A DNA stretch of 43,169 nt from Spirochaetales bacterium (lineage in GTDB: Bacteria > Spirochaetota > Spirochaetia > SZUA-6 > JAFGRV01). Under the pieces are notes generated by a model. It made no database searches, was not told where the DNA came from, and was given only the letters and a program-made list of their open reading frames with translations. The translations under genes and the position numbers were made by a program. Each line of letters begins with the position of its first letter. Position 1 is the stretch's first letter. Shown piece by piece: positions 2,200-31,370 of the stretch. The stretch lies in the NCBI GenBank assembly GCA_016930085.1, contig JAFGHO010000066.1:1-43169 (forward strand), read 5' to 3'.

Positions 2200-2223
2200 G
2201 GGGATTCATAATAACCGTATATA

Positions 2224-2984: not shown

Positions 2985-3009
2985 ACAAAAAATCTAAGGA
3001 GGTTTTCCT

Positions 3010-4284: not shown

Positions 4285-4318
4285 AGTTGACTAATAAATC
4301 TGTTTCTTTTGAAATGAA

Positions 4319-4350
4319 AAAGGGGGAGCGGAAAATGCTCCCCCTTTATT
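4319..4350 (+). terminator. Intercistronic hairpin between binding protein and permeases
   Basis: A perfect 11-bp stem (aaagggggagc with gctccccctttt-side arm at 4337-4347) and a 7-nt loop is followed by a short T-rich tail. It lies 35 bp after the binding-protein stop and 19 bp before the first permease start. Such hairpins usually act as partial terminators or mRNA stabilisers that give more binding protein than permease. That role is inferred. Confidence 0.75.
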
Positions 4351-4365
4351 TGGGGGACTTAATCG

Positions 4366-6657: not shown

Positions 6658-9135
6658 ATGTGTTTATTCATGAAACACGCTATATCACCGTTAATTATTA
6701 CAGGCATACTCTTTCTTCTTTGCTCATTCATACTTCTGATCCTCTGCTTTTACGGGCCGATCGTGCTTGATGTGAAATCCACTGTTTTTATATATCCACT
6801 GTATTGCGTCAAAGAAGGCCCGGAAATCGACCTAATACGAACACAATTTTCGCGCCGGCTTGACGGATCGAGAAGGTATATCGTGATCGAACGGGAATAC
6901 GCCGAAAGAGAACTCGAGCGGAACGGAACGACACTCGCTGAAGTCATGAAAACCCCTTCGAGCGCGCGGTATGCTGAAGCTGCAAAAATAATCGGCGCAG
7001 ACAAGTTTATTATGGGTTATATATATATCTTTGAAGACTCATATGAGTTGTTCGTCAATGTCCACATTACAAAGCTGGCCGAAGGCGTGCTGAAAGAAAA
7101 AGTTACGGCCGGAAGCGCGGAGGAGTTGATCGCGAAAATACCGGTATTGATCGGAAAGCTTGACGGTAGTGAAAAAAACTATTCCCTGCCGGAAATACTC
7201 TACTTTTTCGCACTGTTTTTTCATGCACTTTTCGGCATGTTTCTTCTCGTACAAGGATTTCATATCCCGTTCATCCGTGAAAGGGATCGTCTTGCCCGAA
7301 CAATTGACAGGTTATCGATGCGGATACCGGAATTGCTGCTGATGTACTCACTCCTGCTTTTTATTTTCTCCTATATTTATGCCTCAAACGCAAATATGGA
7401 CTATGTGCAGAAATTCATGGCAACGGGCGGGAAAGTACACCTGGCGACAAGTACCGAACAGGAACGATTGAACGCCGTCTTCAGGTATATGCCGCTTCTC
7501 GGTTTGAGTTGTTACTGTTTCATCTGGATGAGAGTAAAGCGGAAACGATTGGGAATGGAGAACATCATTAACGGGGACTTCAGAGTATTATGGGCTTTTC
7601 CGCTAACCGTCTTCTCCGCGCTGCTCGCCTCCCTCTCCCTTCCGAATTTTCTCGATATCTCAGGATGGGCGATACTTGGGTATATCAGTCTGATCCCGCT
7701 GTTCATGGTGATGGAAAAGAACTCTTATGCATCATGTGTCTTCTACGGGACACTCTTCGGCACCTGTCATACGGTATTCAACAGCTACTGGCTGGGAACC
7801 TTCAACCTTGTCTCTCTCCAGATCGTGATGATTATTTTTCTCATCTCATATCTCATCTTTATGATTCCGGCAGTGTGGTTGTACCGCCGTGCGGGGCCGC
7901 TTCGTTTTCTGGTCTTCCCGGCCGCCTGGGTGGTATTCGATTATCTCCAGTCAATCGGATTCGCCGGCTACCCGTGGGGAATGTTCGGCACCTCGCAATA
8001 CGGATTTGTCCCGCTGATACAGACAGCGGCGATAACCGGGGTGTGGGGGATTACCTTTATTGTTGTTTTAGCCAATTCGGCGGCGGCACATCTTGTCAAC
8101 TCACTGCTGGATAATAAACGAAAAGGCATGCTTTTCCCCCTGGGCCTGTTCGGTGGACTCTTTATTCTCGTGCTTTCGGCCGGTTTCATCTATCTCGGTG
8201 TCACGAACCGGAATGCGACGGTGGGGAATGGAAGAACGGTCCGCATCGCCCAGATCCAGGACAGTATGGACCCGCGAAAGCACTCGACGTACCAGGTCAT
8301 GGAAACGCTTATAAAAATCACTCAGAAAGCGCTGGAACAAAAGCCCGATCTCATCGTATGGCCCGAAGGCTCGTTCGATCTCGATTATCTGGCATTCCCT
8401 GAAGCGATTGCCGCAAGAAACCTCCGTGAATTTCAGGAGTCAACCGGTACCTGGCTTCTCACCGGGACGGTGGAATACAAGGATAGAGAGTTTGCCCGAA
8501 ACGCGGGGCCCGAGGAGTTTCTCGATGCGTACAACGCCGCCATGTTGCTTTCGCCTGACGGTGAGGTGGTCCGGCGTTATTATAAAATTCACCTTGTTCC
8601 ATTTACCGAATATTTTCCGTACGAAAAGGAACTGCCATGGCTGTACAGGATGCTTAAAGAGTTCGATATCAACTGGTGGGAGAAGGGAGAAACACGGGTA
8701 ATATTCCGTCACCCGAAATTTTCTTTTTTTACACCGATCTGCTATGAGGATGTTTTTCCCGCTGAAATAGCGTTGTTCGTGAGAGACGGGGCGGATGTGA
8801 TCATGAATCTTTCCAATGATTTCTGGTCGCTTTCACCGGTCGAAGGAAAACAGCATGCGGTCAATGCCTTGTTCAGGGCGGTGGAAAACGCCCGGCCGCT
8901 GCTACGGACAACCACATCGGGGCTGACCTGTTACATCGATATTAACGGAAGGATAAAAAAGAGACTGCCGTATTACGAGGAAGGCTATTATGTCGTCGAT
9001 GTTCCGCTTCCCGATGGAAACCTCACCTTTTATACCATGACGGGAGACTGGTTCCCGTGGTTTTTACTCGCGGGACTCTGTGTCTTGCTGTTTCCGACAT
9101 TGATGTTATGGATAAGGAAAAAAAGGAAAAGATGA
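6658..9135 (+). CDS. lnt: Apolipoprotein N-acyltransferase with CsgG-like N-terminal domain
   Basis: The C-terminal two thirds is Lnt, the inner-membrane enzyme that adds the third acyl chain to lipoproteins. The nitrilase-type triad is visible: E570 in WPEG, K643 in YYKIHLVPF, C695 in PICYEDVF. The Lnt membrane region spans about 305-530 and a final membrane segment about 800-818. The protein is 825 residues, against about 510 for E. coli Lnt. The extra N-terminus has one membrane segment (about 9-31), then a soluble domain (about 40-175). That domain has a VIEREYAERELERNGTT helix followed by an IIGADKFIMGYIY strand, like CsgG/LpoB/TolB-N-like domains. Further membrane segments link it to Lnt. 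The start is uncertain: no ribosome site is clear, and ATG 6670 is an alternative. It lies 26 bp after the permease and 1 bp before the reductase. Confidence 0.92.
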   Translation: MCLFMKHAISPLIITGILFLLCSFILLILCFYGPIVLDVKSTVFIYPLYCVKEGPEIDLIRTQFSRRLDGSRRYIVIEREYAERELERNGTTLAEVMKTPSSARYAEAAKIIGADKFIMGYIYIFEDSYELFVNVHITKLAEGVLKEKVTAGSAEELIAKIPVLIGKLDGSEKNYSLPEILYFFALFFHALFGMFLLVQGFHIPFIRERDRLARTIDRLSMRIPELLLMYSLLLFIFSYIYASNANMDYVQKFMATGGKVHLATSTEQERLNAVFRYMPLLGLSCYCFIWMRVKRKRLGMENIINGDFRVLWAFPLTVFSALLASLSLPNFLDISGWAILGYISLIPLFMVMEKNSYASCVFYGTLFGTCHTVFNSYWLGTFNLVSLQIVMIIFLISYLIFMIPAVWLYRRAGPLRFLVFPAAWVVFDYLQSIGFAGYPWGMFGTSQYGFVPLIQTAAITGVWGITFIVVLANSAAAHLVNSLLDNKRKGMLFPLGLFGGLFILVLSAGFIYLGVTNRNATVGNGRTVRIAQIQDSMDPRKHSTYQVMETLIKITQKALEQKPDLIVWPEGSFDLDYLAFPEAIAARNLREFQESTGTWLLTGTVEYKDREFARNAGPEEFLDAYNAAMLLSPDGEVVRRYYKIHLVPFTEYFPYEKELPWLYRMLKEFDINWWEKGETRVIFRHPKFSFFTPICYEDVFPAEIALFVRDGADVIMNLSNDFWSLSPVEGKQHAVNALFRAVENARPLLRTTTSGLTCYIDINGRIKKRLPYYEEGYYVVDVPLPDGNLTFYTMTGDWFPWFLLAGLCVLLFPTLMLWIRKKRKR

Positions 9136-9136
9136 C

Positions 9137-10096
9137 ATGAAAAGAAGACAATTGGGAAATACCGGATTGATGGTTTCGGAAATTGGATTCGGAGCGTTTC
9201 AGATCGGGGATGAATATGCCCGCGGCCGGATGTCATTACAGGAAGCCGTATCGCTTGTTCATGCCGCCCGTGATGCGGGGTGTAATTTTTTTGACACGGC
9301 ACCCCTCTATGGCGGGGGAAAAAGTGAGGAAATTCTCGGTGTGGCTTTTTCCGGCAGGAGGGAGGAGGTCATCATCAACACGAAGTGCGGCCATTATCCG
9401 GGAGAAACGGGCAGGAACTTCGATCCTGCATTGATCCGGGAAAGCGTCGAGAAGAGTCTCGGCAGATTGAAAACAGATTATATCGATTCCCTTATCCTGC
9501 ATAATCCGCCCGGGGAACTCCTTTCGGCATCCGCCCCCCACTATGAGGTGTTCGAACGGCTTAAAGAGGAAGGGAAAATTCGCGCCTATGGGGCCTCCCT
9601 CGACTGGAGTCATGAACTTTTTGCCCTTATCGATAATACCAAAAGCAGGGTGATAGAGGTCCTTTTCAATATCTTCCATCAGGAACCGAAAACGGCATTC
9701 GGCAGGGCGGAGGCAAAGGGGGTGGGACTTATTGTGAAGGTGCCGTTCGATTCGGGGTGGCTTTCCGGCAGGTATGACGGAAACACCATATTTACCGATT
9801 TGAGAAGAAGATGGACGCCTGAAATAAAGGCCCGCCGCGAAATCCTTGTCCGGAAAGTGGGAAATCTCATGGCAATGTTCGGCATATCGGACAGTCCCGG
9901 GGAATCGTATATCAAAACGGCGCTGGGATTTGTACTCTCTTTCGCCGGAATCTCGACCGTTATCCCCGGTTTCAAGAACCTCAAACAGGTGACCTCATGT
10001 TTTTCCGCGGCCGAACAGCCTCTGACAAAAAAACTCATCGTAAGCTTCGAGGAATTATGGAATACCGAATTGAAAGACGATCCGGTGCCGTGGTAG
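9137..10096 (+). CDS. Aldo/keto reductase
   Basis: This is an NAD(P)H-dependent oxidoreductase of the aldo/keto reductase superfamily, cytoplasmic, 319 residues. The expected catalytic tetrad is in place: D53 and Y58 (FFDTAPLYGGG), K83 (INTKCG) and H122 (LILHNPP). The N-terminal RQLGNTGLMVSEIGFGAFQIG motif is typical. The cofactor end contains VIPGFKNLKQV. It begins one base after the Lnt stop, so it is probably part of the same transcript. Its substrate cannot be deduced; a sugar or sugar-acid role would fit the upstream importer but is only a guess. Confidence 0.93.
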   Translation: MKRRQLGNTGLMVSEIGFGAFQIGDEYARGRMSLQEAVSLVHAARDAGCNFFDTAPLYGGGKSEEILGVAFSGRREEVIINTKCGHYPGETGRNFDPALIRESVEKSLGRLKTDYIDSLILHNPPGELLSASAPHYEVFERLKEEGKIRAYGASLDWSHELFALIDNTKSRVIEVLFNIFHQEPKTAFGRAEAKGVGLIVKVPFDSGWLSGRYDGNTIFTDLRRRWTPEIKARREILVRKVGNLMAMFGISDSPGESYIKTALGFVLSFAGISTVIPGFKNLKQVTSCFSAAEQPLTKKLIVSFEELWNTELKDDPVPW

Positions 10097-17185: not shown

Positions 17186-19525
17186 ATGACGCTATTCAAT
17201 GCAGCGAAATTAAACCGGATCAGGACCGGATATTACAATCCCGTCGGTTCCGATACCGGAATTTTTTTAAAAAAACCCGAGTATTGTCTTCGGTTTTCTT
17301 TTGCCATCGTCGAAGACAACGAGGATCCGGACGGGTACGGAAGACTGAAACTGCATTTTCCTCATATGGGAAGCAGTGTCGTCAGCTGCTGGGTACCTTT
17401 TGCCCGACCCTATGCCGGACCCGAACGAGGGGTCTGGACGATGCCGGAGATCGGGGATCAGGTCGTCTGTACCTTTCTCAACAACAATCCGGCGAAGCCG
17501 GTCGTGTTGGGCTGTATGTATACACCCAGGGCCAAAGCCCCTGTCTCGGATAACAAGGACAATAATCTCAAGACGATGACGACAAAAAGCGGATCCGTTA
17601 TCACGCTGGACGATACCGAAGGCGGCGAATGTATATCGATTCATACAAAGGACGGAAAAATGCGGCTTGTCCTCGACAAAGAGAAAGGGCTTGAAATCGT
17701 CAATGAAAGCGGTGATATTACCGTTTCCTGTCGCAAAATCATCATGGAAGTGGAAGAGGAAGTCAATTTCAAGATCGATAAACAACTCGAAGTCACCTGC
17801 AAACAGGAAAACCTCGCTATTGAATCCAGGAAGGGTATGGAATACGCTTCAGGCAACAACGCGGTATTGTCCGGCAAGAAAGTCAAGCTGAACGGATCTT
17901 CCGGCGTGACGGCTGGCGTCAAACAGATGGCGAAACAGGACGATCAGGTAATCGGTGTGGATATGCACGATATCAAGGTTCCCACCAATTCGGGACTTAT
18001 AACCGTCCCGATGATCCCTCACCCTTATGTCGGTAAACTGGCGGACAAACTATCGGATGATGTGACAATCAATGACAAGGCCGCCGCGATGAAGGGCAGC
18101 AAATCCAAATATTCGACACCTGGCCATATCCCCATGCCGCCGGGGGTTAAGTTCGCTAAAAATCCGAACAATGAGGGGGAAGTCTCTTCCGGCACCGAGT
18201 CTTCCGTCAAGATCAACGGCAGGGAGGCGGCGGTGTTGGGAAGCATGGTAAAAACCTGCGGTGACCCGCAGCCGCAGGAAACCTGTACGATTGTCGCGGT
18301 TGGTGCGGCCGTACCGCTTCCGATCATGATTCCGGGCATGGATTCGGAACAATTCGAGAAAGACGGAGGATTTATCATAAATACCCGCGATCCTATCGCC
18401 CCCGCCGGGGGACCGCTGCCGCAGGATATCAAAAGGAGTCTGGTCGATCCGGAGTGGAGTTCATCCAGGGTAAAGGCGGGCGAAGAGGTAACGTTGACCG
18501 TACATCTCCAAAACCAGTACGAGAATGCCGCGGTCCATTTTTTTGTGTGGGAAGAAGGAGCGGATCGTGAAAAAGACCCGCCGGTAACGAAAATCATTGC
18601 CTCGAACAAAGGCGGAAAGGCGGAAGCGGCGTGGCGATATGTTCACGTCCACGATCCCGAAAATCCTATTACCGAAAAACCGAAATTTATCTTTACCGCC
18701 GCTTCGTACCGGTGTGAAGAAGTCGAAAGCGGCGGCATCGAGGTGTACGACAGCATAAAAATCAGGATCACGACAGATGGCAATGAAGCGTTTGATAAAA
18801 CCCTGAAGGTTGTCACTGCCGATAAACAGGAATTGTCTAAAAAACCCGATGATAACGGCATCATAGAGCTGGACGATATTGTGCCGGGTATGGTGACGAT
18901 CCTCTATGAGACCGAAGAAAAATCCGGGGAGAAAAAAGCGAATAGCAGTCCGGCTGAAGAAGAACCTCAGAAACCGGCGGCAGAAGAAAGTAAGACCAAA
19001 ACAGAACCCCCTGAATTCAGCGGTCTGAAGTGGCTTAAAAATGACAGTGAAGTAAAGAAGGCCAAAATAAACGATATTATTACACTGGCCGCGGATGTCA
19101 AAAATATCGAGCCAGACCATCCGGTACGGATTACGATATATGAAAAGAATTACAAAACGGAAAACGACTTTATCCGCAGCGATATCGTAGCGGTAAATGA
19201 TGAAAACAGGATTGAGTTCGGGTGGCAGGTGATATATTACGAAGACAGAGAAGACGATGAAGAAACCGAAACTCATACTAATACACCTGAATATATCTTT
19301 ACGCTGGAAACACTCGACAAAAAAGTGACGAGTGAGGAAAGTCCTGTTTTAAAGACGGGTGCCGATTTTGAACTGTATGTCTACGATTCCAGCGGGGAAT
19401 TGGTCGACAGCGGAAAACTCACCCTGATTCTTGGCGACGGAAGCAAAAGAGAAGTTTCCATCAATAACGGCAGGGTATTTGTCGAAGACATACCTCTTGG
19501 CGATGTAAAAATAATATATGAATAG
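17186..19525 (+). CDS. VgrG/gpV-like spike protein with PAAR-like tip and Ig-like repeats
   Basis: This 779-residue protein looks like the puncturing spike of a contractile injection machine. Residues 36-112 form a gp5/gpV OB-fold (FAIVEDNEDPDGYGRLKLHFP, then MPEIGDQVVCTFL and PVVLGCMY). Residues 125-240 are short repeating strands that fit the triple beta-helix needle. Residues 255-385 match PAAR-like (DUF4150-like) tips, with SSVKINGREAAVLGSMVKTCGD. Two Ig-like modules follow (about 405-545 and 590-700), separated by a Glu/Lys/Pro-rich linker, and a final beta module ends at 779. A usual VgrG has a gp27-like N-terminal domain (Phage_GPD); it is absent here. The start at 17186 is supported by gaaagg. 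It heads a seven-gene operon of peptidoglycan hydrolases. No sheath, tube or baseplate genes are in the window. Confidence 0.85.
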   Translation: MTLFNAAKLNRIRTGYYNPVGSDTGIFLKKPEYCLRFSFAIVEDNEDPDGYGRLKLHFPHMGSSVVSCWVPFARPYAGPERGVWTMPEIGDQVVCTFLNNNPAKPVVLGCMYTPRAKAPVSDNKDNNLKTMTTKSGSVITLDDTEGGECISIHTKDGKMRLVLDKEKGLEIVNESGDITVSCRKIIMEVEEEVNFKIDKQLEVTCKQENLAIESRKGMEYASGNNAVLSGKKVKLNGSSGVTAGVKQMAKQDDQVIGVDMHDIKVPTNSGLITVPMIPHPYVGKLADKLSDDVTINDKAAAMKGSKSKYSTPGHIPMPPGVKFAKNPNNEGEVSSGTESSVKINGREAAVLGSMVKTCGDPQPQETCTIVAVGAAVPLPIMIPGMDSEQFEKDGGFIINTRDPIAPAGGPLPQDIKRSLVDPEWSSSRVKAGEEVTLTVHLQNQYENAAVHFFVWEEGADREKDPPVTKIIASNKGGKAEAAWRYVHVHDPENPITEKPKFIFTAASYRCEEVESGGIEVYDSIKIRITTDGNEAFDKTLKVVTADKQELSKKPDDNGIIELDDIVPGMVTILYETEEKSGEKKANSSPAEEEPQKPAAEESKTKTEPPEFSGLKWLKNDSEVKKAKINDIITLAADVKNIEPDHPVRITIYEKNYKTENDFIRSDIVAVNDENRIEFGWQVIYYEDREDDEETETHTNTPEYIFTLETLDKKVTSEESPVLKTGADFELYVYDSSGELVDSGKLTLILGDGSKREVSINNGRVFVEDIPLGDVKIIYE

Positions 19526-19546: not shown

Positions 19547-21226
19547 ATGTTATTTTACAGAAGTTATTTCATTTTCACACTCGGAAACGGCAATAAACGG
19601 TGGGCGGATTTTTCAAAAAACAAAACGGATATAGGTGTCTATTCCGTCGCATCATATTTTTTCGACGATTTTATCACCAAACAATCACAAGACGTCAAAA
19701 AGAAGCTTTTCTCCGGTTTTTCTCATTTATCCGACAAAGGCGCGTTCAGCGACAAGTGCCTCAAGGCTTCCGAGGAGCATGACGAATGGAATTGGGGCGA
19801 CGTTTATAAAGGCCTGCTGCAATCGGGTGAATCATGTTGCGTCTGCATCCCGGGTTATTATCACATTGTTAGAAAAAAGAATCGGGAAAACACCTCCTAT
19901 CCATCGGCATGGAGAGTGACGAGGGACCTCTCGAAGGAAGAATCAAAAATATCGCAAGGTATTCCATTAGCCGACTATGCGACGGTCGTCAAGGATTTGT
20001 TTATGGTGAGGTACGGGGTAGCCCCCGAAGATTACAAAGGCGGGGTGGTCGAATATTTTCTTCCTGGCGCGGAAATCAAGAAAATCGTGACCAAAGAAAA
20101 AAAGACGGAGGAAAAAAAAGAAGAAAGCGGAACGGCGGAAGTAAAAACGGAAGAAAATAAGACGGAAGGAACCCCGACTGATGGAACCGATTATTATATC
20201 GTGACGATTGACGGGCTCAATGTGAGGATGAGCGATTCTTCGGGCGGAAAGAGTTTCCTCAAGCTGAATAAGGGGGTAATTGTCGAATATATCAAAACGG
20301 GAAAGGCGGAAGTCATTCAGGGGCATAACGGAACGTGGATAAATATACGGGTGTCGAAAGGTGTTGAGGGGTGGTGTTATGACCGGTTTTTGAAAAAAGT
20401 CGACAGTAAAAAAAATTTCATCGTTCTCGACGGCGGGAAGAAAAAAATAAAAAACGTCATTGTGTTTCTTAACCCCGGACATAGAAACACGAAATTCGAT
20501 TACGGATGCGTCGGATTCACGGATGACTGGAAGACGTTTGCGGTAAAAAACATGAAAGAACGCGACGGCTTTTATGATACGAAAATAAAACGGGAAGCGT
20601 CCGTCGTGCTTCAGATCGCGTTAAAACTCAAAAGTCAACTGGAAGCCGACAATTATTCGGTTGAGATAACCCGCACGACTTCCTCCGAAGTCAAATCACT
20701 GGACAACGTCTGTCAATTCGTCAACAAGAAATTGACTGATAACAGCGTGAAATCGAAGGTGGCCGTTTTCATTTCCCTGCATACGAACTCGGCCGCTAAA
20801 AAAACACTGACGAAAGATGAGTTGAAAAAAGTTCGTGCCAAAAAGATAGACGGATACTATTATTATACATTTGAAGACGGAACCAGCTCCACGATTCCCG
20901 TTCCCGATACGACAAAATCGGGCGGATTGATTTATATGCAGAAAACCGTAAAGAATACGAAAGGAGATACGATCCTTTACAAGGCACATCCGAAAAGTAT
21001 AATACTGCAGGAAAATATCGCTTCCGAACTCGGCGGCTTGAAGCCGGGTTGTGTCAAAAAGGAAGCGAATTTCAAAGTATTGCGCGATACCAGAGAGATA
21101 CCCGGTGTTTTGCTGGAACTCGGGTTTATGACCAATCCGGATGAATTGAATTTTTTGATAAAGGAAGAAAATCAGAAGAGTATATGTTCAAAAATTGTCG
21201 CGGGCTTGAACCGCTGTTTCAAATAA
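19547..21226 (+). CDS. N-acetylmuramoyl-L-alanine amidase (SH3 + Amidase_3) with unknown N-terminal domain
   Basis: This 559-residue protein should cut the amide bond between muramic acid and the stem peptide. Residues 1-174 form a domain I do not recognise. Residues 180-212 are a Lys/Glu-rich linker. Residues 214-285 form a bacterial SH3 domain (VTIDGLNVRMSDSSGG...GVEGWCYDRFL). Residues 300-557 are Amidase_3, with zinc ligands H312 (NPGH), E350 (KREAS) and H412 (SLHTN), and catalytic E524 (LLELGFMTNPDE). No signal peptide or membrane segment is present, unlike housekeeping AmiC-type amidases. This fits delivery by the spike encoded 21 bp upstream, and the unknown N-terminal domain could be the docking part. 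That role is inferred. Confidence 0.88.
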   Translation: MLFYRSYFIFTLGNGNKRWADFSKNKTDIGVYSVASYFFDDFITKQSQDVKKKLFSGFSHLSDKGAFSDKCLKASEEHDEWNWGDVYKGLLQSGESCCVCIPGYYHIVRKKNRENTSYPSAWRVTRDLSKEESKISQGIPLADYATVVKDLFMVRYGVAPEDYKGGVVEYFLPGAEIKKIVTKEKKTEEKKEESGTAEVKTEENKTEGTPTDGTDYYIVTIDGLNVRMSDSSGGKSFLKLNKGVIVEYIKTGKAEVIQGHNGTWINIRVSKGVEGWCYDRFLKKVDSKKNFIVLDGGKKKIKNVIVFLNPGHRNTKFDYGCVGFTDDWKTFAVKNMKERDGFYDTKIKREASVVLQIALKLKSQLEADNYSVEITRTTSSEVKSLDNVCQFVNKKLTDNSVKSKVAVFISLHTNSAAKKTLTKDELKKVRAKKIDGYYYYTFEDGTSSTIPVPDTTKSGGLIYMQKTVKNTKGDTILYKAHPKSIILQENIASELGGLKPGCVKKEANFKVLRDTREIPGVLLELGFMTNPDELNFLIKEENQKSICSKIVAGLNRCFK

Positions 21227-22476
21227 AAATACTCACCGCCGTGTTCGTTATCGTGTTTTGCGCAGTATCGTATGGAGAAGCAAACACGCTGCTTCAGACG
21301 GTACAGTACAAAAATCCCAAGGCGGTCGACGAAAACGGGTATTTCTGCCAGCGTTATGTGGATGATCCTCATCACGGTGAATATCCTCCGCAGCTGCTTA
21401 GTGTCAAGGACGGTGTTGAAACGTTTTTGACATGCGCGATCGATGCGGAGGCGGGGATTCGATACGACATGAAGAACGAAACGCTCCGTTTTTCAAATGA
21501 ATGCGGCGGCTTTTCATTCCATTTGAGGACATATGCGATCGGGCGCGGCGGGTCGGACGATGCCGGAACCGCGGTAATTCTTCCCTTTTCGGACGGGCTC
21601 GGGAGAACGATCGACTCGGATGATTTCGGTCTTTTTTATATAAAAGGCTCGGACGTGCGCTATATATTGTTGATGAACGCGGCCGGTTACCGTGTCGCGG
21701 ACGACGGCAGATACATCGCCATTCTGGTGAATACGTACTCCCCGGAGGATAACGGGTTGTTCCTCTTTGACCGCGTGAAGCGGGAAAGCATTGTCATCGA
21801 TACGGGAATGGTCGTGTCACCCGAGTTTGTTTCGAATACGTCGGTCGCGTATAAAAAAAACAATGGGATCGTGATTTTCGATATGAAAACACGGCGCAGG
21901 TCCGAAGTCGTGATAAGCGCGAACAGGTTCCAGTTTCTGGATGAAAAAAATCTCTTCTATACGCACAGGAATGTGCTGTATCGACTGGATATCGAATCCG
22001 GAAAGCGGAAAAAAATACTCGACCGTGTCACCGGAAAATTCCACTATTCACCCGGCAATCAATTGCTTGTTTATGAGAACAACGACGCTTTATGTTTCTA
22101 TTACCCGGAAAAAAACGGAATGCTGGCTGACAATATCACGATACTCGATCATTACGACGATTTCGAATGCATCGGAAGCAAGGTGTATGTGCTGAGAGCG
22201 GAATACAGAAATTACACGGACGCAGGCAGACTCATGTTTTATGAAACAGAGATATTGTATCTCGAGCAATTCGACAGGAACGGACGTCTTTCCGGTCTCG
22301 CCGTATTGCATGTCGAAAACTATGCGGATGTCATAACGAGTGACCGAATAAAAAATACATTCGATATATACCGGGGTATAAAGATCGTTTATACAAGTAA
22401 CAGCTGCCGGGATATCACGATGGCGGATTGGAACGGAGAACCACACACAATGGGGATCCTCAAGGAGGCAGAATGA
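21184..22476 (+). CDS. Exported beta-propeller-like protein, candidate immunity protein
   Basis: A 430-residue protein with a predicted signal peptide (hydrophobic ILTAVFVIVFCAVSYGEA, about residues 15-33). The mature part is beta-rich with repeating blades such as YRVADDGRYIAILVNTY, NGIVIFDMKTRRR and NVLYRLDIESGKRKKIL, which resembles WD40-like or TolB-type propellers. I recognise no catalytic motif. The chosen start overlaps the amidase gene by 43 nt; a later start such as GTG near 21241 would remove most of the signal peptide, so I keep ATG 21184. The next gene overlaps it by 4 nt. Its export and position after a cytoplasmic-looking amidase fit an immunity protein in the periplasm, but it could equally be a structural or accessory protein. 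Confidence 0.75.
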   Translation: MFKNCRGLEPLFQIKILTAVFVIVFCAVSYGEANTLLQTVQYKNPKAVDENGYFCQRYVDDPHHGEYPPQLLSVKDGVETFLTCAIDAEAGIRYDMKNETLRFSNECGGFSFHLRTYAIGRGGSDDAGTAVILPFSDGLGRTIDSDDFGLFYIKGSDVRYILLMNAAGYRVADDGRYIAILVNTYSPEDNGLFLFDRVKRESIVIDTGMVVSPEFVSNTSVAYKKNNGIVIFDMKTRRRSEVVISANRFQFLDEKNLFYTHRNVLYRLDIESGKRKKILDRVTGKFHYSPGNQLLVYENNDALCFYYPEKNGMLADNITILDHYDDFECIGSKVYVLRAEYRNYTDAGRLMFYETEILYLEQFDRNGRLSGLAVLHVENYADVITSDRIKNTFDIYRGIKIVYTSNSCRDITMADWNGEPHTMGILKEAE

Positions 22477-23480
22477 AAAAAAATGGGCGCGTTAATAAGG
22501 GGCTTCGCCTGTTGTTGACAGCCGCCGTCCTGTTTTACGTGACGCTTTCCGTGTATTCCGATACGCCCGATCGGCAGTCGTGTTTCATTATCCGCTTCGG
22601 AAAAGCCGCCGAAAAATCAGAAGTCGTAAAAAATAAAGCGATATGGGAAGCGAAAGGTTGTCCTGTTTCAATACGTGAAGTTTCCGGAAACGGTGAAAAA
22701 ACATACGAACTCGAGATTGGCGGATTCAAGACAGAAGTCAACGCGTCCCTCTTTGCCGGTTATTTCGGAATCGATACGGCGCATGTTGTGGAGGCGGAAC
22801 AAACGGGAGGGGATACCCGTACCGTCTATCGGAATAAGATCGTGAGAAAACTTTCCGAAACAGACGCAGGCACCGTTTATTATTATTTCGGAAGGAACCA
22901 TCCCTTTCTGCTTTTATACCGGGTTAAAAGCGGTTTCGAAGGGGCTCTGATACCCTCCGATCTCATCCTTTTCGCAGGCGGTTCTGAAACGGAATTCTAC
23001 CTCGAGGATGTTACCGGGTTTGAAGAAAAGGAAGATGTTCTTCTGGTCGGAAAATCGGTTGAGGTTTTTTTTGAATATGGTTACGTCGATATCGGGGATA
23101 AAACGGATGAGATAAAAAAAACGGCATCGACGTACGGCATTCAGGAAGACGTTATTAAAAAACATCTTCTCTATTTCGATGACGGCGCCAGCGCGCGGGT
23201 AACGCTTTTGGCCGTCTGTGATGTCGAACGGCTTTCCGTATCGCTTCAGGGTAACATCGGATTTGATTTTTATTCCGAGCAAGAAGGACAGCTCATGTAT
23301 ACCGGCGACATCGCCCGATACAAACGAAAACCCGTGAGTATCGGAAACGGGGGGCTTGCGCCCGTCGAACTCGGGGCTCCGGGCGAGATCGGACATTATG
23401 CCTCCGGCGGCATTACCCTGTACGCAAAAAAAGACCCGGTAACCCGGCTGGGGTCCTATATGATACTATTCAAGGAGTAA
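22473..23480 (+). CDS. Exported protein with SPOR-like domain, unknown function
   Basis: A 335-residue protein with a signal peptide (about 1-29; KGLRLLLTAAVLFYVTLSVYS). I start it at 22473 because aaggagg lies 5 nt upstream and the ATGA overlaps the previous stop; a longer frame from 22428 lacks this. Residues 37-105 (FIIRFGKAAEKSEVV...YELEIGGFKTEVNASLFAGYFG) follow the strand-helix-strand pattern of SPOR-like peptidoglycan-binding domains, which is tentative. The remainder is beta-rich and not recognisable. It lies between two cell-wall hydrolase genes in the spike operon, so a role in cell-wall binding or protection is plausible but unproven. Confidence 0.72.
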   Translation: MKKNGRVNKGLRLLLTAAVLFYVTLSVYSDTPDRQSCFIIRFGKAAEKSEVVKNKAIWEAKGCPVSIREVSGNGEKTYELEIGGFKTEVNASLFAGYFGIDTAHVVEAEQTGGDTRTVYRNKIVRKLSETDAGTVYYYFGRNHPFLLLYRVKSGFEGALIPSDLILFAGGSETEFYLEDVTGFEEKEDVLLVGKSVEVFFEYGYVDIGDKTDEIKKTASTYGIQEDVIKKHLLYFDDGASARVTLLAVCDVERLSVSLQGNIGFDFYSEQEGQLMYTGDIARYKRKPVSIGNGGLAPVELGAPGEIGHYASGGITLYAKKDPVTRLGSYMILFKE

Positions 23481-23489
23481 GGATTACCG

Positions 23490-26400
23490 ATGTTAATCGA
23501 TGACTGGGCGACACTGGAAACGAATTTTTTCAATGCCCGCAAGACGGGCAGCAACCTCGAAGAAAAATACCTCGGCGGACTTAAGGTGTATAAAATGGTC
23601 AACTGGCGGACCGGTTATTACCACAGTGAAGAAACGACAAAGCACCAGATCGTGCTTCATTACACGGTCGGACCGGTCTCCTCGGCGCTGCCGTGGTTGA
23701 CAAGGCAGGATTACGACGTGAGTGTCGCCTACATGATCGCCCGCGACGGCACCGTCTATGAATTGTTCGATCCAAAGTACTGGTCGAATCACCTGGGAAT
23801 TCCGGCAAATTATGATGATTTCTGCTGCAAACAGACGATCGCGATAGAAATATGCAACAAAGGCTGGCTGGACAGGGACGGTGACATATTAAAAAACGAT
23901 CTCGCTCCGTATAATTACTGCCGTATATCGGACTCTGACTATTATTACCGGCATTATGAGGAGTTCCGGGGCCATTATTATTACGCGACATATTCACAGG
24001 AGCAATATAAAGCGTTGCGGCGCCTGATTCCTTACCTCTGTATGAAGTTCAATATCCGGCATAAATTCCTTCCCAAAAAAAGAATAAACGATTTTCTTTC
24101 GGAAAATGAAATGAAAAACTTCAGGGGCATTCTCACCCATACGAACTTCAGGACGGGCAAACAGGACGTCGGGCCGGCATTCCGCTGGGAAGAAATCATG
24201 GGATATTCACTGCCAATCGACATCAACACCTCGGACACGGCAATCGAGAACGGTTCGGGGATAAAGCCCACCCATGCAGCCCTTGAACGCTACTATCATC
24301 ATACGGAAATCGCGCACAGGGGCGGGTATTTCCCGGTCGGCGCGAACACGATCTGGCACGGCGGCCTGCACATTCACACGCAGGCCACGGGCGAACCCGT
24401 CCTCGCGATGGCCGGCGGTAAACTCGTCGCCGCGCGCCTGGCCGAAGAAGACAAGGCCTGCCGGCATTACGGAAGCAACAATTTCATACTGCTCGAGCAC
24501 ACGTTCGGCGAGGAGAAATACTATTCACTATATATGCATCTCCATTGGGAACCGCTTATGGATTCGAATGCCAACCTGATAACGATTCCCTGGCTGCAGA
24601 CCGAGCGGACGATCAATTACCAGAAAATACTCGTCACCGATTCGAATATACTGTCACGCCTCAAAAAGGGTGAGGTGTGCACGTTCGACGACAAATCGAT
24701 ATCGACCGGTGAAAAGATCTGGACATCGGGGCTTTACGGCTCGCCGGATTACCGCACCCCGATGATCCATTGGGAAATATTTTCCGAACACCGTCTGATG
24801 GGGGAAATGTGGACGAGAAGCCCGGTGGACGGGGATAACGATTCGATCATCGATCTCGATTCGATGATCGAGATGATCGATGTAAAGGACCTGACCACAA
24901 GACACGGCGACGGTCTCCTCACCGCGGAAGAAATCATCCGGTTCTACCGGTACAACAATGGAGCCGCGAAACAACTGCGTTACTACGCCTGTTATTTTAT
25001 CCTCGAAAACGCGATCGACTGGGACACTGCCGTGAATGAACTACAGAACCGCGGATTTCTCAACTGGAAGAATATCGGGCTTCCGGACAGATTGCGGGCG
25101 TACAATTTCTGGGATGAAGCGAAAAGCGCGGGAGTCGAACTCCCGGACAGCCCGAAAGTCTGGCATTATAATCCCGTCACGTTCATCGAATTGGCAACCT
25201 TGAAGTGCAAACGCCTTCGATTCGCGTCCGGAATGTTCGACGCGAACAGAAGTTTTCCCAAACAGGGCGTCTGCAGTCTGTTGAGTTCTCTGGCCGCAAT
25301 TAAAAGGGAAAATCCCCATGTCAAATGTCTCTGCCTGGGGTATGCCGGCGGCGCGGATAATTCCTGCGGAAACAAGACGACGTTGTCGGAAAAACGGGCG
25401 GAAGCCATCGGTTTTCTCGCTTTAAACAATGGCGACGGCAAACTCCGCTGGATTGCCAGGTTCGACTATGATTCGAACTGGGGGAATTTCGAAATACAAA
25501 CGATACTGAGTTTTCTCACAAAACCCGACGGTTCCGGTCCCTATTACTACGATTACCCAAACGATACCGGGCGGGCGATCGATGATACCAACGGCCCCGG
25601 CCAGAAAGAGGCGGTCAAGGCGTTCGAAGAGGACAATGGGTACGAGGTCGAGGGGGAAGGAACGGGGGTGCCCCGCGCGAGTGCACTCTCGATCATGTAC
25701 GACCGTTATTATGCCGCCTTCGATACTTCCCTTTCCGTCACTCTCGAAACGGCCGACATATTGGGAACGGGAGACACGCACAGCGCAGAAATTCCGGATG
25801 ACGCCTTTGTCGATATTCTCGCGTTTCCCGATATCATTCTTCCCCTCGTGGAACGGTACCCGGCGGACAAATCGAATATTTTTAAAAAATGGCAGTCCTT
25901 TGTCGAGGCCGATGTCGATCCCAACGCTTTCACGCTCAGGGTGACGCGCATCGGCTTTACTGATCGTCTCGCCGACAGTCCGCCCTGTATCCGGGTCGAA
26001 ATAGCGGTAAGCCACGCGGTCGAAATACCGAGGTTTACCGAAATTGAAAAAACGGACGGCAAACCGCGCAGGCTTTTCTTCGATCTCGAGAACGCCCTGC
26101 TTGCGGTTCCGGCGGGTTCGGCCAATCCCCTCAATGTCAATAAAGGCGAATTGATACGGGTGCGTTATTCCCAAAACACGGAAAACCGTGTACGGGTGGT
26201 ATTCGACGTGACGGAGCAAGCGGATTATACGGCCCGCATCGCAGAAGGAGAGGGAAACTCCGGATTTATCGTCGATATCGGCAGAAGCACCAACGTGAAA
26301 CTTCAATCCGCAACGAGTTCACAGGAAACGAATGAAAGCGGGGCGGCGATCGATAAAATACAATTCGAATTCGACGATGAAATTCCCGAAAGCAATACCG

Positions 26401-27902
26401 TGTTTCGGATGGAGGGGGATGAAGAGACCGGATATCGCTATGTAGTCGGCCTCGAGGGTGTGGCATTGGCTGAAGATTCCGATATCAAAAACTGGGATAA
26501 AAACGGCGATCGCTATACGAGGGAACTCACCGGCATGCGGTATACGGAGAAAATCGTCTGTAATACCGGAAACGGCGATGTCCTTTCCAGCGTCGAAATC
26601 CTTCTCAAAGGACAATTTGAAGCGACCCATTATGAAACGGGAAACGATGAAGCGTTCCGGCTCAATGTCAAAATCGGCGAGCCGCCCCCGATACAGTTGA
26701 GTAATATCATAGACGGCGATCATTCCAATGAGGCTCCCCCGTACTGGAGGGTCGTCTGTATTTTCAATGAACCGATCGATGTCAATCGTTTCGATATCGC
26801 CGAAGAGGGGAAGGGGACGGACGATCACGTTTTCTCGTTCGAACTCGATCGTATCGAGCTTTCATCCGATTCGCCGCTCCTCCAGTGGGCGGGACGGCGG
26901 GACGAACTGAACAATGATTTTATAAAAAGTATACAATACTCACATGACGATGAAGCGAAAACACTTGCGGTTCGCATGAATGTTTCAAAAGAGGCGACCA
27001 TAAAAAAAGGAAGTACCCGCTCAGACGGCGTATCCGAGAGGGTCTATTTCGATATTTATACACAGCGGGCCACGGCCGTGATGTCGGTCGACACAGATAC
27101 TTATGCCGATGGTATTCCGATCATTCCGACGGAGTCACGGGTGGAAGGCGGCAAAGTCAAGAGGCGTATCGATGTACAGATTGAAGTCAAACAGGGTGAG
27201 ACGCCGTTGAGTGACGTCAGTCTTACCGTGACGGTCGACCGAGGTTCCGCATTTCAATTCCAACAGCCGCAGCCCACGGATGAAAACGGGAAGACCTCTA
27301 TCCGGGTGGAAACGAGGGAATCCGGGGAGGCCGTCTTTTCCATCGATTGCGACGATTACGATATCCAGGCTGAAGACTTCACGGTCGATTTCACGGAAGC
27401 CTGGTACGAAAGCGGATTTCTCGTTACCGCCTATCACTTTTGTCATGAAAGCGATTTCAGCGGTCCGCTTGTCGATGCCGAAGGACTGAACGAACAACAC
27501 AGGAGTGATTTTCTGTACGACGGCACGGGAGTCTGTATGCAGGGGACGGGGCTGACGGAATCGAACGGATACATACATATTACCAATCCGCAGAACTTAA
27601 GCTGGACGGGACATTACGATGAAATCGACAATCAGGATGACGCCGTATTCGCTTACGGCGCGGGCGGCGCCTACAATGAGATCGAGGAAGGCACCTCCAT
27701 CGCCGTCGATCCCGCGGTGATTCCGCCGAATCACCGGGTCGATATTCAACGTGTCGGTGAAAGAAGGGCAGACGATACGGGCGGGGCGATCGATGACTAT
27801 CATATCGATGTATTTATGGGGGGCGGCCGGCGGGCAATCAATAACTGGAACCAGCAAGGAGGAAATATCACCAATGCACGGGTCAGATACCTCGGTCAAT
27901 AG
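23490..27902 (+). CDS. Giant multi-domain peptidoglycan hydrolase (Amidase_2, degenerate M23, OmpA-like, AMIN, 3D)
   Basis: This 1470-residue protein joins several cell-wall modules. Residues 35-240 are an Amidase_2/PGRP amidase with zinc ligands H57, H217 and D226. Residues 270-435 are an M23/LytM-like domain with H290, H350 and H427, but the metal Asp is His (H294) and the His before IHWEIF is Met (M425), so it may be inactive or altered. Residues 580-650 resemble the OmpA peptidoglycan-binding domain (NKTTLSEKRAEAIGFL). Residues 695-740 resemble a PG_binding_1 domain. Residues 815-932 and about 945-1160 look AMIN-like, followed by an Ig-like module (about 1190-1300). Residues 1310-1468 are a 3D lytic-transglycosylase domain with Asp triad D1407, D1429 and D1440. 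There is no signal peptide. It lies in the spike operon, which suggests an injected effector. Confidence 0.85.
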   Translation: MLIDDWATLETNFFNARKTGSNLEEKYLGGLKVYKMVNWRTGYYHSEETTKHQIVLHYTVGPVSSALPWLTRQDYDVSVAYMIARDGTVYELFDPKYWSNHLGIPANYDDFCCKQTIAIEICNKGWLDRDGDILKNDLAPYNYCRISDSDYYYRHYEEFRGHYYYATYSQEQYKALRRLIPYLCMKFNIRHKFLPKKRINDFLSENEMKNFRGILTHTNFRTGKQDVGPAFRWEEIMGYSLPIDINTSDTAIENGSGIKPTHAALERYYHHTEIAHRGGYFPVGANTIWHGGLHIHTQATGEPVLAMAGGKLVAARLAEEDKACRHYGSNNFILLEHTFGEEKYYSLYMHLHWEPLMDSNANLITIPWLQTERTINYQKILVTDSNILSRLKKGEVCTFDDKSISTGEKIWTSGLYGSPDYRTPMIHWEIFSEHRLMGEMWTRSPVDGDNDSIIDLDSMIEMIDVKDLTTRHGDGLLTAEEIIRFYRYNNGAAKQLRYYACYFILENAIDWDTAVNELQNRGFLNWKNIGLPDRLRAYNFWDEAKSAGVELPDSPKVWHYNPVTFIELATLKCKRLRFASGMFDANRSFPKQGVCSLLSSLAAIKRENPHVKCLCLGYAGGADNSCGNKTTLSEKRAEAIGFLALNNGDGKLRWIARFDYDSNWGNFEIQTILSFLTKPDGSGPYYYDYPNDTGRAIDDTNGPGQKEAVKAFEEDNGYEVEGEGTGVPRASALSIMYDRYYAAFDTSLSVTLETADILGTGDTHSAEIPDDAFVDILAFPDIILPLVERYPADKSNIFKKWQSFVEADVDPNAFTLRVTRIGFTDRLADSPPCIRVEIAVSHAVEIPRFTEIEKTDGKPRRLFFDLENALLAVPAGSANPLNVNKGELIRVRYSQNTENRVRVVFDVTEQADYTARIAEGEGNSGFIVDIGRSTNVKLQSATSSQETNESGAAIDKIQFEFDDEIPESNTVFRMEGDEETGYRYVVGLEGVALAEDSDIKNWDKNGDRYTRELTGMRYTEKIVCNTGNGDVLSSVEILLKGQFEATHYETGNDEAFRLNVKIGEPPPIQLSNIIDGDHSNEAPPYWRVVCIFNEPIDVNRFDIAEEGKGTDDHVFSFELDRIELSSDSPLLQWAGRRDELNNDFIKSIQYSHDDEAKTLAVRMNVSKEATIKKGSTRSDGVSERVYFDIYTQRATAVMSVDTDTYADGIPIIPTESRVEGGKVKRRIDVQIEVKQGETPLSDVSLTVTVDRGSAFQFQQPQPTDENGKTSIRVETRESGEAVFSIDCDDYDIQAEDFTVDFTEAWYESGFLVTAYHFCHESDFSGPLVDAEGLNEQHRSDFLYDGTGVCMQGTGLTESNGYIHITNPQNLSWTGHYDEIDNQDDAVFAYGAGGAYNEIEEGTSIAVDPAVIPPNHRVDIQRVGERRADDTGGAIDDYHIDVFMGGGRRAINNWNQQGGNITNARVRYLGQ

Positions 27903-28335
27903 AAGAACGGGTTTTTACATCTCGCGGACGTTGATGTTTATCGTCATCTTTTTTATACAGGGCGTATTTTGTTTTTCCGAGGGAAGTGTAGCGTTTGAAC
28001 ATGTTGCAGCGATCGTCAGGCAGGATGAATCGGTCTATCGACTCATCGTTTTATTGTTTGAGTTTGAAACCGATTTTACCGGGATCAGACTCGGGAACAA
28101 TTTCCCTTTTCTGGGCGGAAGCAGGATCGGGCCGTACGAATGCACGGTGTCCTTGAAAAACGGTGTGACCGGGGATCAGACATATACACTCATCGTCAAT
28201 ACAAAGGTCGTTTTTTTGGATGAAGAGAAACGGGAATTGGATGACCGGATATTCAATGCCCGCTTCATCAAAGAATATTTTCTGAATATTGAAATTCGCG
28301 GGGTTCATCGGGATTCTCGCGAGGAAAAGAAATAG
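27874..28335 (+). CDS. Small exported protein after giant hydrolase, candidate immunity protein
   Basis: A 153-residue protein with an N-terminal hydrophobic signal (TLMFIVIFFIQGVFCFS, about 20-36). The mature part is beta-rich (FEHVAAIVRQDESVYRLIVLLFEFET). I start it at 27874, where aaggagg lies 11 nt upstream; this overlaps the giant hydrolase gene by 29 nt. The position after an effector-like hydrolase and the export signal fit a periplasmic immunity protein. I do not recognise a family, and a lipid- or wall-binding role is also possible. Confidence 0.7.
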   Translation: MHGSDTSVNRRTGFYISRTLMFIVIFFIQGVFCFSEGSVAFEHVAAIVRQDESVYRLIVLLFEFETDFTGIRLGNNFPFLGGSRIGPYECTVSLKNGVTGDQTYTLIVNTKVVFLDEEKRELDDRIFNARFIKEYFLNIEIRGVHRDSREEKK

Positions 28336-28573: not shown

Positions 28574-29215
28574 TTATTCCTCGAGGCTGTAGGTGATGGT
28601 AACCTCAAGCGTCACCGTTTTACCCAGGTTGTGCCGGTAGGGCAATACCGATTTGATGACGGAAACAGCCGCCCGCTCGAGGATCGACGATCCCTCTTTT
28701 GACGTTATCCTGCATCCGAGATAGTCACCGTCAGAGTCGATGGTAAACGAAATCCCCACCGTTCCCTCGAGATTTCTTCGCCGCGCGGCGCGCGGATAGA
28801 CGGTATTCTTTCGTATTCTTTCGTAAAGCCCCCTGAATACCTCGGCCGGGTCGGGTTCGATATCTTTTCCCGTTCCCGTTGTATTGATTGTCGTCTCCTG
28901 TCCTTCTCTTCCGGCCGTCTCTGGAAGACCGTTATCGGGTGATGTATCGTGGTTAACAGGTTCGGATGACAGGGTGTTTCCCGATTCTTTCTCGACCGTC
29001 AATGGAGAATGTTTTTTAACCAACGCCGTTTGTTCATTCCGTTCATGATTCCGGGCGGGAATATAGGTCAACGTCGCCTTCATGCCCCCTTCATGCGACG
29101 CCGATCCTTCGGCTGTATCCGCGGGGGGGGAATATGAGAGGACACAGAAGGCGGCGGCATGAAGCATGCCGGAAAAGAGGAATGAAAGCCATACCCGGTA
29201 CCGTTTGTCGTTCAT
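28574..29215 (-). CDS. tonB: TonB-family energy-transducing protein
   Basis: A 213-residue protein with one N-terminal membrane anchor (about 8-28), a variable periplasmic linker (about 30-125), and a TonB C-terminal domain (about 128-213). The C-terminal domain shows YPRAARRRNLEGTVGISFTIDSDG, a classical TonB_C signature. It contacts the TonB box of outer-membrane receptors and passes on energy from ExbB-ExbD. The linker lacks the long Pro-Lys stretch of E. coli TonB. It overlaps exbD by 4 nt and ends the B12 uptake operon. Confidence 0.92.
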   Translation of the reverse strand: MNDKRYRVWLSFLFSGMLHAAAFCVLSYSPPADTAEGSASHEGGMKATLTYIPARNHERNEQTALVKKHSPLTVEKESGNTLSSEPVNHDTSPDNGLPETAGREGQETTINTTGTGKDIEPDPAEVFRGLYERIRKNTVYPRAARRRNLEGTVGISFTIDSDGDYLGCRITSKEGSSILERAAVSVIKSVLPYRHNLGKTVTLEVTITYSLEE

Positions 29216-29634
29216 AAATCTTTTTCAGGTTTCTTTTCCACAATGAAACGGAAGTGTTCCGCCCCCGATTCTTTAGCGATGTCCATGACCTCGATGACAT
29301 CCTGAAAGGGCACATCGAGTCCCACCTGCAGTCCCACTTCCTTCTCTTCACGGTCCGAAAGAAGATCCCCGAGCGCGGCGAGAAGTGCGGAAAGCGGGAC
29401 GGGTGCGCCGTCGAGCAGGATCGTTCCGTTTTTCTGTATCGTAACGAGAAGCGGCGATTCGGGGAGGATCAGGCCCTGATCGGATTCGGGGAGTTCGACG
29501 GGAATCTGCGGCCTGCTGTAATATGAGGTAAGCAGGAAGAAAATCAAAAGGAGGAAAACCATATCGATCAGCGGGGTAATCTCGGGCCCGTGGTCGTCAT
29601 ACTCGTCATGTTCGAAATTTTTGAACTCGATCAT
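29212..29634 (-). CDS. exbD: Biopolymer transport protein ExbD
   Basis: A 140-residue ExbD/TolR-type protein. One membrane segment (about 19-41) contains the proton-binding Asp in the motif PLIDMVFLLLIFFLL. The periplasmic domain ends in RFIVEKK. It partners ExbB to use the proton gradient to energise TonB. It overlaps both neighbours by 4 nt (ATGA), so the set is translationally coupled. Confidence 0.93.
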   Translation of the reverse strand: MIEFKNFEHDEYDDHGPEITPLIDMVFLLLIFFLLTSYYSRPQIPVELPESDQGLILPESPLLVTIQKNGTILLDGAPVPLSALLAALGDLLSDREEKEVGLQVGLDVPFQDVIEVMDIAKESGAEHFRFIVEKKPEKDL

Positions 29635-30266
29635 CGTTTTATGAGTGAAATCAACTCCTCTCCCGTGTGTTTCATCTGAAAGGCGATGTGGCGGAGACGG
29701 CCGAGGTAAAGGTGATAGGCGATCAGGGCCGGTATGCCGACAATAAGGCCGAACACGGTAGTGATGAGCGCCTCCCAGATGCCGCCCGCAAGCAGGGAGG
29801 CATCTGGTACCGCATCGACGGAGGCGATCGTCTGAAACGCCCTGACCATACCGGTGACCGTTCCGAGCAGGCCGATCATGGGCGCGATTTTCCCGATCAG
29901 TGCGAGGAGATGAAGGCGGTTTTTCAGAGAATTGAGCAGCCGGTCGCCCAGAAGCGAGATGTCGCGTTCGATTGCCTCTTCCGGTTCGTTTCGCCTGAGG
30001 AATATTTCCCTGACGAGGATCCGTACCGGTGCGCTATTACGTGCCAAAGATGAACGCACCACATCGGCCTTCCCCGACCCGAAAACCTCCGGGATCGACG
30101 GAAGGTCTTTCCGCTTTATTCCCGAACGGAAAAAGACAAACGCGCGTTCGATAACGATCGCGAGTGTCATGAGGGAACATATCAGAAGGGGGTACATAAG
30201 AATTCCCCCTTTGTGAAACAAATCGATTATCACGGCCATTTTTTTCTTTTTTTTCCCGGCATACAA
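29631..30266 (-). CDS. exbB: Biopolymer transport protein ExbB
   Basis: A MotA/TolQ/ExbB-family proton channel subunit of up to 211 residues with three membrane segments. MYPLLICSLMTLAIVIERAFVFF marks the first, and the signature LIGKIAPMIGLLGTVTGMVRAFQ is near the middle. The start is either ATG 30266, with aaaagggg 4 nt upstream, or ATG 30239 (MAVIID), which resembles other ExbB N-termini; the Lys-rich stretch between them is unusual. It lies 6 bp after the lipoprotein gene. Confidence 0.93.
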   Translation of the reverse strand: MYAGKKKKKMAVIIDLFHKGGILMYPLLICSLMTLAIVIERAFVFFRSGIKRKDLPSIPEVFGSGKADVVRSSLARNSAPVRILVREIFLRRNEPEEAIERDISLLGDRLLNSLKNRLHLLALIGKIAPMIGLLGTVTGMVRAFQTIASVDAVPDASLLAGGIWEALITTVFGLIVGIPALIAYHLYLGRLRHIAFQMKHTGEELISLIKR

Positions 30267-30272
30267 CCCCTT

Positions 30273-31346: not shown

Positions 31347-31370
31347 GATTACTCCTTACATAAAACCTTG

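What the first reader, a model, noticed from the sequence alone, without database searches (positions are those of the whole stretch)
17186..19525. Spike lacking the gp27-like domain, fused to PAAR-like tip and Ig modules
A normal VgrG begins with a Phage_GPD (gp27-like) region before the OB-fold. Here the OB-fold begins at residue 36 and the PAAR-like tip is in the same chain, followed by two Ig-like modules. This is a one-chain spike and tip with a possible cargo-docking tail.
Basis: partly seen in the sequence, partly recalled or inferred. Interest (0 to 1): 0.7.

Follow-up and report, generated by a model that had tools for sequence, protein, structure and literature searches.

The report
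Spirochaete injection spike carrying cargo-docking tails
This gene encodes the spike and tip of a phage-tail-like injection machine in an uncultured spirochaete, and related genomes indicate that its interchangeable tail holds cell-wall-cutting enzymes made by the neighbouring genes, a loading scheme known from type VI secretion but not found in the eCIS papers I could search.

Summary
ORF 17186-19525 (779 aa) is an OB-fold/beta-helix spike with no gp27-like domain, a complete PAAR cone in the same chain, and two C-terminal modules, each an Ig-like domain followed by a short prealbumin/transthyretin-like (TTR) domain. The missing gp27 half is ordinary: it is a separate gene beside an eCIS core cluster elsewhere in this genome, and in every genome checked that has such a spike. 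What is unusual is the system. In Spirochaetota (Treponema succinifaciens plasmid pTRESU01 is a named example) such spikes, and gp27 hubs with similar tails, form multi-copy cargo islands. Within a genome the bodies are often near-identical while the last ~55-80 residues diverge, and each copy precedes a different toxin-like gene. The window spike's tail 1 resembles tails that precede M23/Amidase_2-type peptidoglycan hydrolases; tail 2 resembles a gp27 hub's tail whose downstream gene shares an N-terminal domain with window gene 19547. The window encodes one hydrolase of each kind. Best reading: an eCIS spike with T6SS-like 'a la carte' docking tails. All credible PAAR hits in nine genomes lie in long spikes, and each genome also has a short PAAR-less spike, so a mixed trimer is a testable possibility. 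No protein was tested experimentally.

The parts
17186..19525 (+). spike-carrier gene (779 aa): OB + beta-helix + PAAR + Ig1/TTR1 + Ig2/TTR2
17300..17521 (+). OB-fold (residues 39-112), gp5-like
   Evidence: Phage_base_V E 1.9e-21; profile hits to Alg8/Pvc8/Afp8/VgrG OB region
17522..17905 (+). beta-helix stalk (residues about 113-240)
   Evidence: the short spike (216 aa) aligns to residues 39-236 and ends there; profile match to the solved spikes spans residues about 36-234
17921..18310 (+). PAAR cone (residues about 246-375)
   Evidence: PAAR_motif in 13/13 homologous segments; model Z 11.2 to 4jiw_D
18422..18751 (+). Ig-like domain 1
   Evidence: model, residues 417-521, Z about 10 to intimin D0-D1 and complement/macroglobulin domains
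18752..18925 (+). TTR-like segment 1; five nearest tails are of spikes that precede M23/Amidase_2-type peptidoglycan hydrolases
19004..19345 (+). Ig-like domain 2 (hub type)
   Evidence: 36% identical to the gp27-Ig hub on contig C2 over 182 aa; Z 10.7, rmsd 2.2 A over 105 residues to B. fragilis T6SS cargo protein BtaeB, 9jg8_C
19346..19522 (+). TTR-like segment 2; nearest is the C2 hub tail
19547..21226 (+). cargo candidate 1: N-terminal domain (19547-20098) + SH3_3 + Amidase_3; conserved His312/Glu350/His412/Glu524 motifs
21184..22476 (+). protein with signal-peptide-like N-terminus, possible immunity protein (inference)
   Evidence: no Pfam hit
22428..23480 (+). protein with signal-peptide-like N-terminus, possible immunity protein (inference)
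   Evidence: no Pfam hit
23490..27902 (+). cargo candidate 2 (1470 aa): Amidase_2, weak M23, AMIN, Big_1, 3D domains; homologous at residues 54-352 to a large gene in a spike island of G042
27751..28335 (+). protein with signal-peptide-like N-terminus closing the run of genes (frame overlaps the end of the previous gene)

Best explanation
The gene encodes an alternative, cargo-carrying spike for an extracellular-type contractile injection system (eCIS) of a spirochaete. The gp27-like hub that adapts the sixfold tube to the threefold spike is a separate protein encoded beside the eCIS core on contig C99. The OB/beta-helix part trimerises, the fused PAAR sharpens the tip, and the tail hangs off the tip as a docking arm. 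Each docking module is an Ig-like stem plus a variable TTR-like end that recognises a matching cargo protein encoded downstream. In this spike the two modules most likely take two peptidoglycan hydrolases, 19547-21226 (tail 2) and 23490-27902 (tail 1), which are carried into a target cell on firing; neighbouring exported proteins may give immunity. Shown by computation: domain content, separate hub, eCIS core, islands with many different cargo genes, sharp identity breaks at or near the Ig/TTR boundary between copies in one genome, and association of tail type with downstream gene class. Inferred: physical docking, which cargo binds which tail, target, immunity.
For: Separate gp27 gene in G000, G002, G003, G004 and G042, all of which have the spike, and none in G001, which lacks it. 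C99 carries gp19 tubes, sheaths, CIS_tube+LysM, gp25, Baseplate_J, Pvc16_N, Tail_P2_I and an AAA ATPase. IcmF/TssM absent in four genomes, E. coli control positive. T. succinifaciens plasmid NC_015386: eCIS core, three long spikes and several gp27 hubs, each followed by a different gene, e.g. M23 peptidase or Ntox44. Copies in one genome: L083 pair 100% identical to about residue 275 then about 30%; L084/L085 100% to about 360 then down to 46%; L038/L039 95-100% to about 320 then 30%; T. succinifaciens S1/S2 62-100% to 600 then 32-36%. All four genes with the 19547-type N-terminal domain in the 13 genomes searched lie directly after a hub-type tail: window spike, C2 hub, T. succinifaciens, G368. 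Nearest-tail class matches the downstream gene class in 20 of 23 cases against 7.3 by shuffling. Window TTR1 is nearest to five spikes that precede M23/Amidase_2-type hydrolases although its same-genome paralog C133 precedes an amidohydrolase-like gene; TTR2 is nearest to the C2 hub. Prealbumin-like SpaA hits in 10 of 14 tail ends. T6SS precedent: TTR-like VgrG C-termini set effector choice and can be swapped (PMC6684961).
Against: No binding or secretion data. The tail/cargo association is not specific to TTR: the Ig part alone gives 19 of 23, the classes were assigned by me, and relatedness is only partly controlled. With same-genome carriers excluded, the window's own TTR end is not nearest to its class. 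The full-length model is poor over the OB part. L035 and L040 have a tail but no obvious cargo gene directly downstream. The window island is on a different contig from the eCIS core, so pairing is inferred. In T. succinifaciens two hubs (41563, 59168) carry another domain instead of the tail.
Confidence: 0.78

Rival explanations
1. The Ig/TTR tail is a target-binding or purely structural extension rather than a cargo dock; the downstream hydrolases are neighbours that act independently.
For: Ig1 resembles intimin and macroglobulin domains; Ig-like domains often serve adhesion (general knowledge).
Against: Divergence between same-genome copies is concentrated at the TTR end and goes with different downstream genes; the same tail type sits on hubs as well as spikes and goes with the same cargo N-terminal domain; in two T. 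succinifaciens hubs the tail is replaced by another domain, as in cargo fusion (inference).
Confidence: 0.13
2. It is a spike of a type VI secretion system, or of a prophage or tailocin, not of an eCIS.
For: OB region matches VgrG models and T6SS-like cargo logic is present; BtaeB of the B. fragilis T6SS is a top fold match for Ig2.
Against: Genome has gp19 tubes, Baseplate_J, Pvc16_N and CIS_tube+LysM; no IcmF/TssM in four genomes; no match in 50,697 phage records or in viral contigs.
Confidence: 0.05
3. It is a decayed VgrG that lost its gp27 half and has no function.
For: The window island is separate from the eCIS core; T. succinifaciens has some broken carrier fragments (16163, 16720, 21713).
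Against: Intact 779-aa frame with conserved OB and PAAR and a 60% identical paralog; family kept in several genera; short and long spikes both lack gp27 and the hub is separate.
Confidence: 0.03

Closest known systems
eCIS spike Cis8 plus tip Cis10 (Alg8/Alg10, Pvc8/Pvc10, Afp8, Anabaena All3320)
   Same: OB fold and beta-helix align; PAAR tip; eCIS core genes in the genome.
   Different: Known Cis8 includes the gp27 domain and PAAR is a separate single-copy protein (PMC8894135, PMC8894136). Here gp27 is separate and PAAR is fused, with a docking tail. Cargo reported in AlgoCIS is in the tube lumen.
T6SS VgrG with C-terminal TTR-like domain (EAEC VgrG1/Tle1; P. aeruginosa VgrG4b/PldA, VgrG5/PldB)
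   Same: Variable TTR-like end after a conserved spike body, cargo encoded next door, several copies per genome (PMC6684961, PMC7043769).
   Different: VgrG has gp27, no fused PAAR in these examples, and belongs to a membrane-anchored T6SS; here an Ig stem precedes each TTR and the tails also occur on gp27 hubs.
T4 gp27/gp5/gp5.4 and BIS (gp27 and spike as separate genes)
   Same: Split hub and spike.
   Different: PAAR separate in T4; no Ig/TTR docking tail.
B. fragilis T6SS cargo complex BtpeA-BtaeB-BtapC on VgrG (9jg8, 9jg9)
   Same: PAAR and Ig-like domains at a spike tip; fold matches to both.
   Different: There PAAR and Ig parts are on effector proteins, not on the spike chain; sequence identity 12-17%. 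No paper on it was found in the library.
Francisella VgrG/PdpA
   Same: Spike lacking a gp27 head.
   Different: Very short VgrG, said to lack even the OB fold.

Membership tests
Phage_base_V / gp5-like spike | OB fold above family cut-off followed by beta-helix | tested here: met
   76.6 bits against 23.8 cut-off; profile match to solved spikes
PAAR tip | PAAR cone fold | tested here: met
   13/13 segments hit PAAR_motif; Z 11.2 to PAAR structures; the window segment alone scores 25.0 bits, just under the 27-bit cut-off, and 27.5 with its neighbours in the frame
T6SS VgrG (TssI) | gp27 + gp5 fused in one chain | tested here: not met
   no Phage_GPD at E<=1; VgrG models matched only in the OB part, below cut-offs
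T6SS | TssM/IcmF membrane complex in the genome | tested here: not met
   no IcmF-related match in four genomes, control positive; other Tss genes not searched
eCIS | gp19 tube, sheath, Baseplate_J and Pvc16/DUF4255 together (criterion in PMC8651086: two of four) | tested here: met
   all four on C99; in T. succinifaciens gp25/J/sheath/tube directly precede a long spike. Linkage to the window gene itself is by genome, not by contig
eCIS | released extracellular particle | not testable with these tools
   needs microscopy
TTR-type effector docking (as in VgrG) | variable TTR-like C-terminus matched to downstream cargo | tested here: met
   association also holds for the Ig part; TTR segment matched SpaA/prealbumin in 10 of 14, solved VgrG TTRs only at E 0.5-0.7
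TTR-type effector docking (as in VgrG) | physical binding of cargo | not testable with these tools
   needs binding experiments or multimer prediction

The most novel reading that the evidence does not exclude
A mixed-trimer, multi-warhead spike: two short PAAR-less chains (about 216 aa) plus one long chain form one spike, so that a single fused PAAR caps a threefold stalk and one Ig/TTR tail presents two different peptidoglycan hydrolases, while gp27 hubs with the same kind of tail carry further cargo. The eCIS would change payload by swapping one chain. Support: credible PAAR hits in nine genomes lie only in long spikes or their remnants; each of these genomes has a short spike; the short gene lies 13-22 bp, or about 160 bp, upstream of a long one in four genomes; the short chain ends just before the PAAR starts.
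Probability: 0.3. Interest if true: 0.83.

Novelty: new variant of a known kind. Interest (0 to 1): 0.66.

Why it matters
eCIS cargo is generally described as sitting in the tube lumen, and T6SS cargo on the spike. These spirochaete islands suggest that an eCIS can also load its spike and its hub through exchangeable docking tails, giving a natural library of carrier/cargo pairs. That makes two questions testable: how a threefold spike carries a single fused PAAR, and which residues pair a tail with its cargo. T. succinifaciens DSM 2489 carries a complete named version on a plasmid.

Tried and rejected
(2) Phage and viral collections: no relatives. (3) The whole-chain model did not resolve the OB region, so the OB call rests on profiles; its Foldseek list was filled by complement and other Ig-type proteins, treated as generic beta-sandwich matches. 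(4) The C2 cargo candidate looked Amidase_2-like by eye, but gave no Pfam or PDB hit; not claimed. (5) The extra domain of T. succinifaciens hubs 41563 and 59168 looked C39/papain-like by eye; Pfam gave only hub domains for the one tested; left unnamed. (6) I hoped TTR similarity alone would track cargo class better than the Ig part; it did not (20/23 against 19/23). (7) No paper on spirochaete eCIS in the searches made; the library is open-access only.

Full report
What is there. The window is a complete contig (C66) of a 5.36-Mb, 135-contig genome in the same phylum as a genome whose second contig matches the Treponema succinifaciens plasmid pTRESU01 at the same coordinates, hence Spirochaetota. 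The gene at 17186-19525 encodes 779 residues. Phage_base_V matches the OB region at E 1.9e-21 and no Phage_GPD is seen. A profile of the family matches solved eCIS and T6SS spikes only downstream of their gp27 region. Residues about 246-375 form a PAAR cone by profile (13 of 13 homologous segments) and by predicted fold (Z 11.2). Two Ig-like modules follow, each ending in a prealbumin/TTR-like segment (SpaA in 10 of 14 tail ends).

Where the gp27 half is. Genome searches gave three OB spikes (C133 twice, C66) and two gp27-like genes (C2, C99). C99 holds the core: two gp19 tubes, two sheaths, CIS_tube with LysM, gp25, Baseplate_J, Pvc16_N, Tail_P2_I and an AAA ATPase, with a 350-aa stand-alone gp27-like gene. 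Every one of five genomes checked with the spike (G000, G002, G003, G004, G042) has such a hub, and G001 has neither spike nor hub. A split hub and spike is therefore the normal state of this lineage and resembles T4 and BIS. No IcmF/TssM was found in four genomes.

What the tail does. The decisive clue came from C2: a gp27 hub carrying the same tail as the window spike (36% over 182 aa; genome search E 7.5e-27), followed by a gene whose N-terminal domain matches that of the window gene 19547 (E 2.0e-16). The same N-terminal domain was found in only two of the other genomes searched, T. succinifaciens and G368, both times directly after a hub-type tail. On pTRESU01, three long spikes and several hubs are each followed by different genes, including an M23 peptidase and an Ntox44 toxin. 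In four genomes, carriers that are near-identical over the body diverge near the Ig/TTR boundary or within the tail end, the pattern described for VgrG4b/VgrG5 (69% body, 25% TTR identity; PMC6684961), where swapping the TTR-like end re-routes an effector. Other spike islands carry large genes: amidohydrolase-like, M23 or Amidase_2 hydrolases, and two families with LysM-like N-termini in some members. Tail similarity across genomes predicts the downstream gene class in 20 of 23 cases against 7.3 by shuffling, but the Ig part predicts nearly as well (19 of 23), so the docking surface cannot be narrowed to TTR from this test.

A two-tail, two-cargo reading of the window. TTR1 of the window spike is nearest to five spikes that precede M23/Amidase_2-type peptidoglycan hydrolases, not to its own paralog C133; TTR2 is nearest to the C2 hub. 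The window has one gene of each kind: 23490-27902 (Amidase_2, weak M23, AMIN, Big_1, 3D) and 19547-21226 (SH3_3, Amidase_3). The Amidase_3 domain keeps the expected His312, Glu350, His412 and Glu524 motifs (roles from general knowledge of the family). Three adjacent genes encode proteins with signal-peptide-like N-termini and could be immunity proteins (inference). This reading was formed after seeing the data and needs a binding test.

The symmetry problem. In known eCIS a separate single-copy PAAR tips the trimeric spike. Here a whole PAAR cone is fused to the spike chain, so a homotrimer would carry three. In nine genomes all credible PAAR hits (E below about 0.1) lie in long spikes or their remnants (sensitivity is limited because the fused PAARs themselves score near or below the cut-off, so divergent stand-alone PAARs could be missed), and all nine have a 210-216-aa spike that stops where the PAAR would begin. 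The short gene lies 13 bp (G042), 22 bp (G354, and C133 judging by the 27 residues at its contig start) or about 160 bp (G419) upstream of a long one. A mixed trimer is plausible and unproven. V. cholerae has been reported to need a heterotrimeric VgrG in which the unextended VgrG2 seems most important (as cited in PMC8668125).

Verdict. The absence of gp27 is ordinary; the exchangeable spike-and-hub carrier system in a spirochaete eCIS is the notable part. It was not described in the papers found, a limited open-access library. I rate it a new variant of a known kind.

Noticed in passing
window 112-2199 (+): Family 9 glycoside hydrolase with a type I dockerin and a CelD_N domain, i.e. a cellulosome-like enzyme in a spirochaete; related sequences occur in loci L047, L048 and L053 of neighbouring genomes.
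   Followed up: no
L006 (C133) 1986-4874, L036, L037, L041, L043: Large (962-1463 aa) genes after spikes with amidohydrolase-like motifs (such as VIDAHMHIQSNN); only one weak Pfam hit (Amidohydro_2, E 0.0026). Activity unknown.
   Followed up: partly
NC_015386.1 41563-43416 and 59168-61033 (L080): gp27 hubs whose tail is replaced by another domain, each followed by a homologous protein with a signal-peptide-like N-terminus (43435, 61035; 37% identical): possible fused toxin and immunity pairs.
   Followed up: partly
G042 C2, C8, C13, C26 and G419 C45, C50 contig ends: Contigs break inside spike genes, as expected from near-identical multi-copy spikes; draft genomes of this group will fragment exactly at these islands.
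   Followed up: partly
G000 C133:1-81 and C2:1-81: Both contigs begin with the identical last 27 residues of the short spike, so the short spike 3' end is repeated and C133, C2 and another copy are probably linked in the real genome.
   Followed up: no
window 28574-33350 (-): TonB-like, ExbD- and ExbB-like genes (by eye) near a TonB-dependent receptor (Pfam), apparently unrelated to the spike island.
   Followed up: no
L008 (C99) 9255-9812 and 8676-9230 (-): GNAT-like acetyltransferase and radical-SAM-like genes (by eye) inside the eCIS core; a 4Fe-4S protein lies beside the AAA ATPase in T. succinifaciens too (61913). Role unknown.
   Followed up: no
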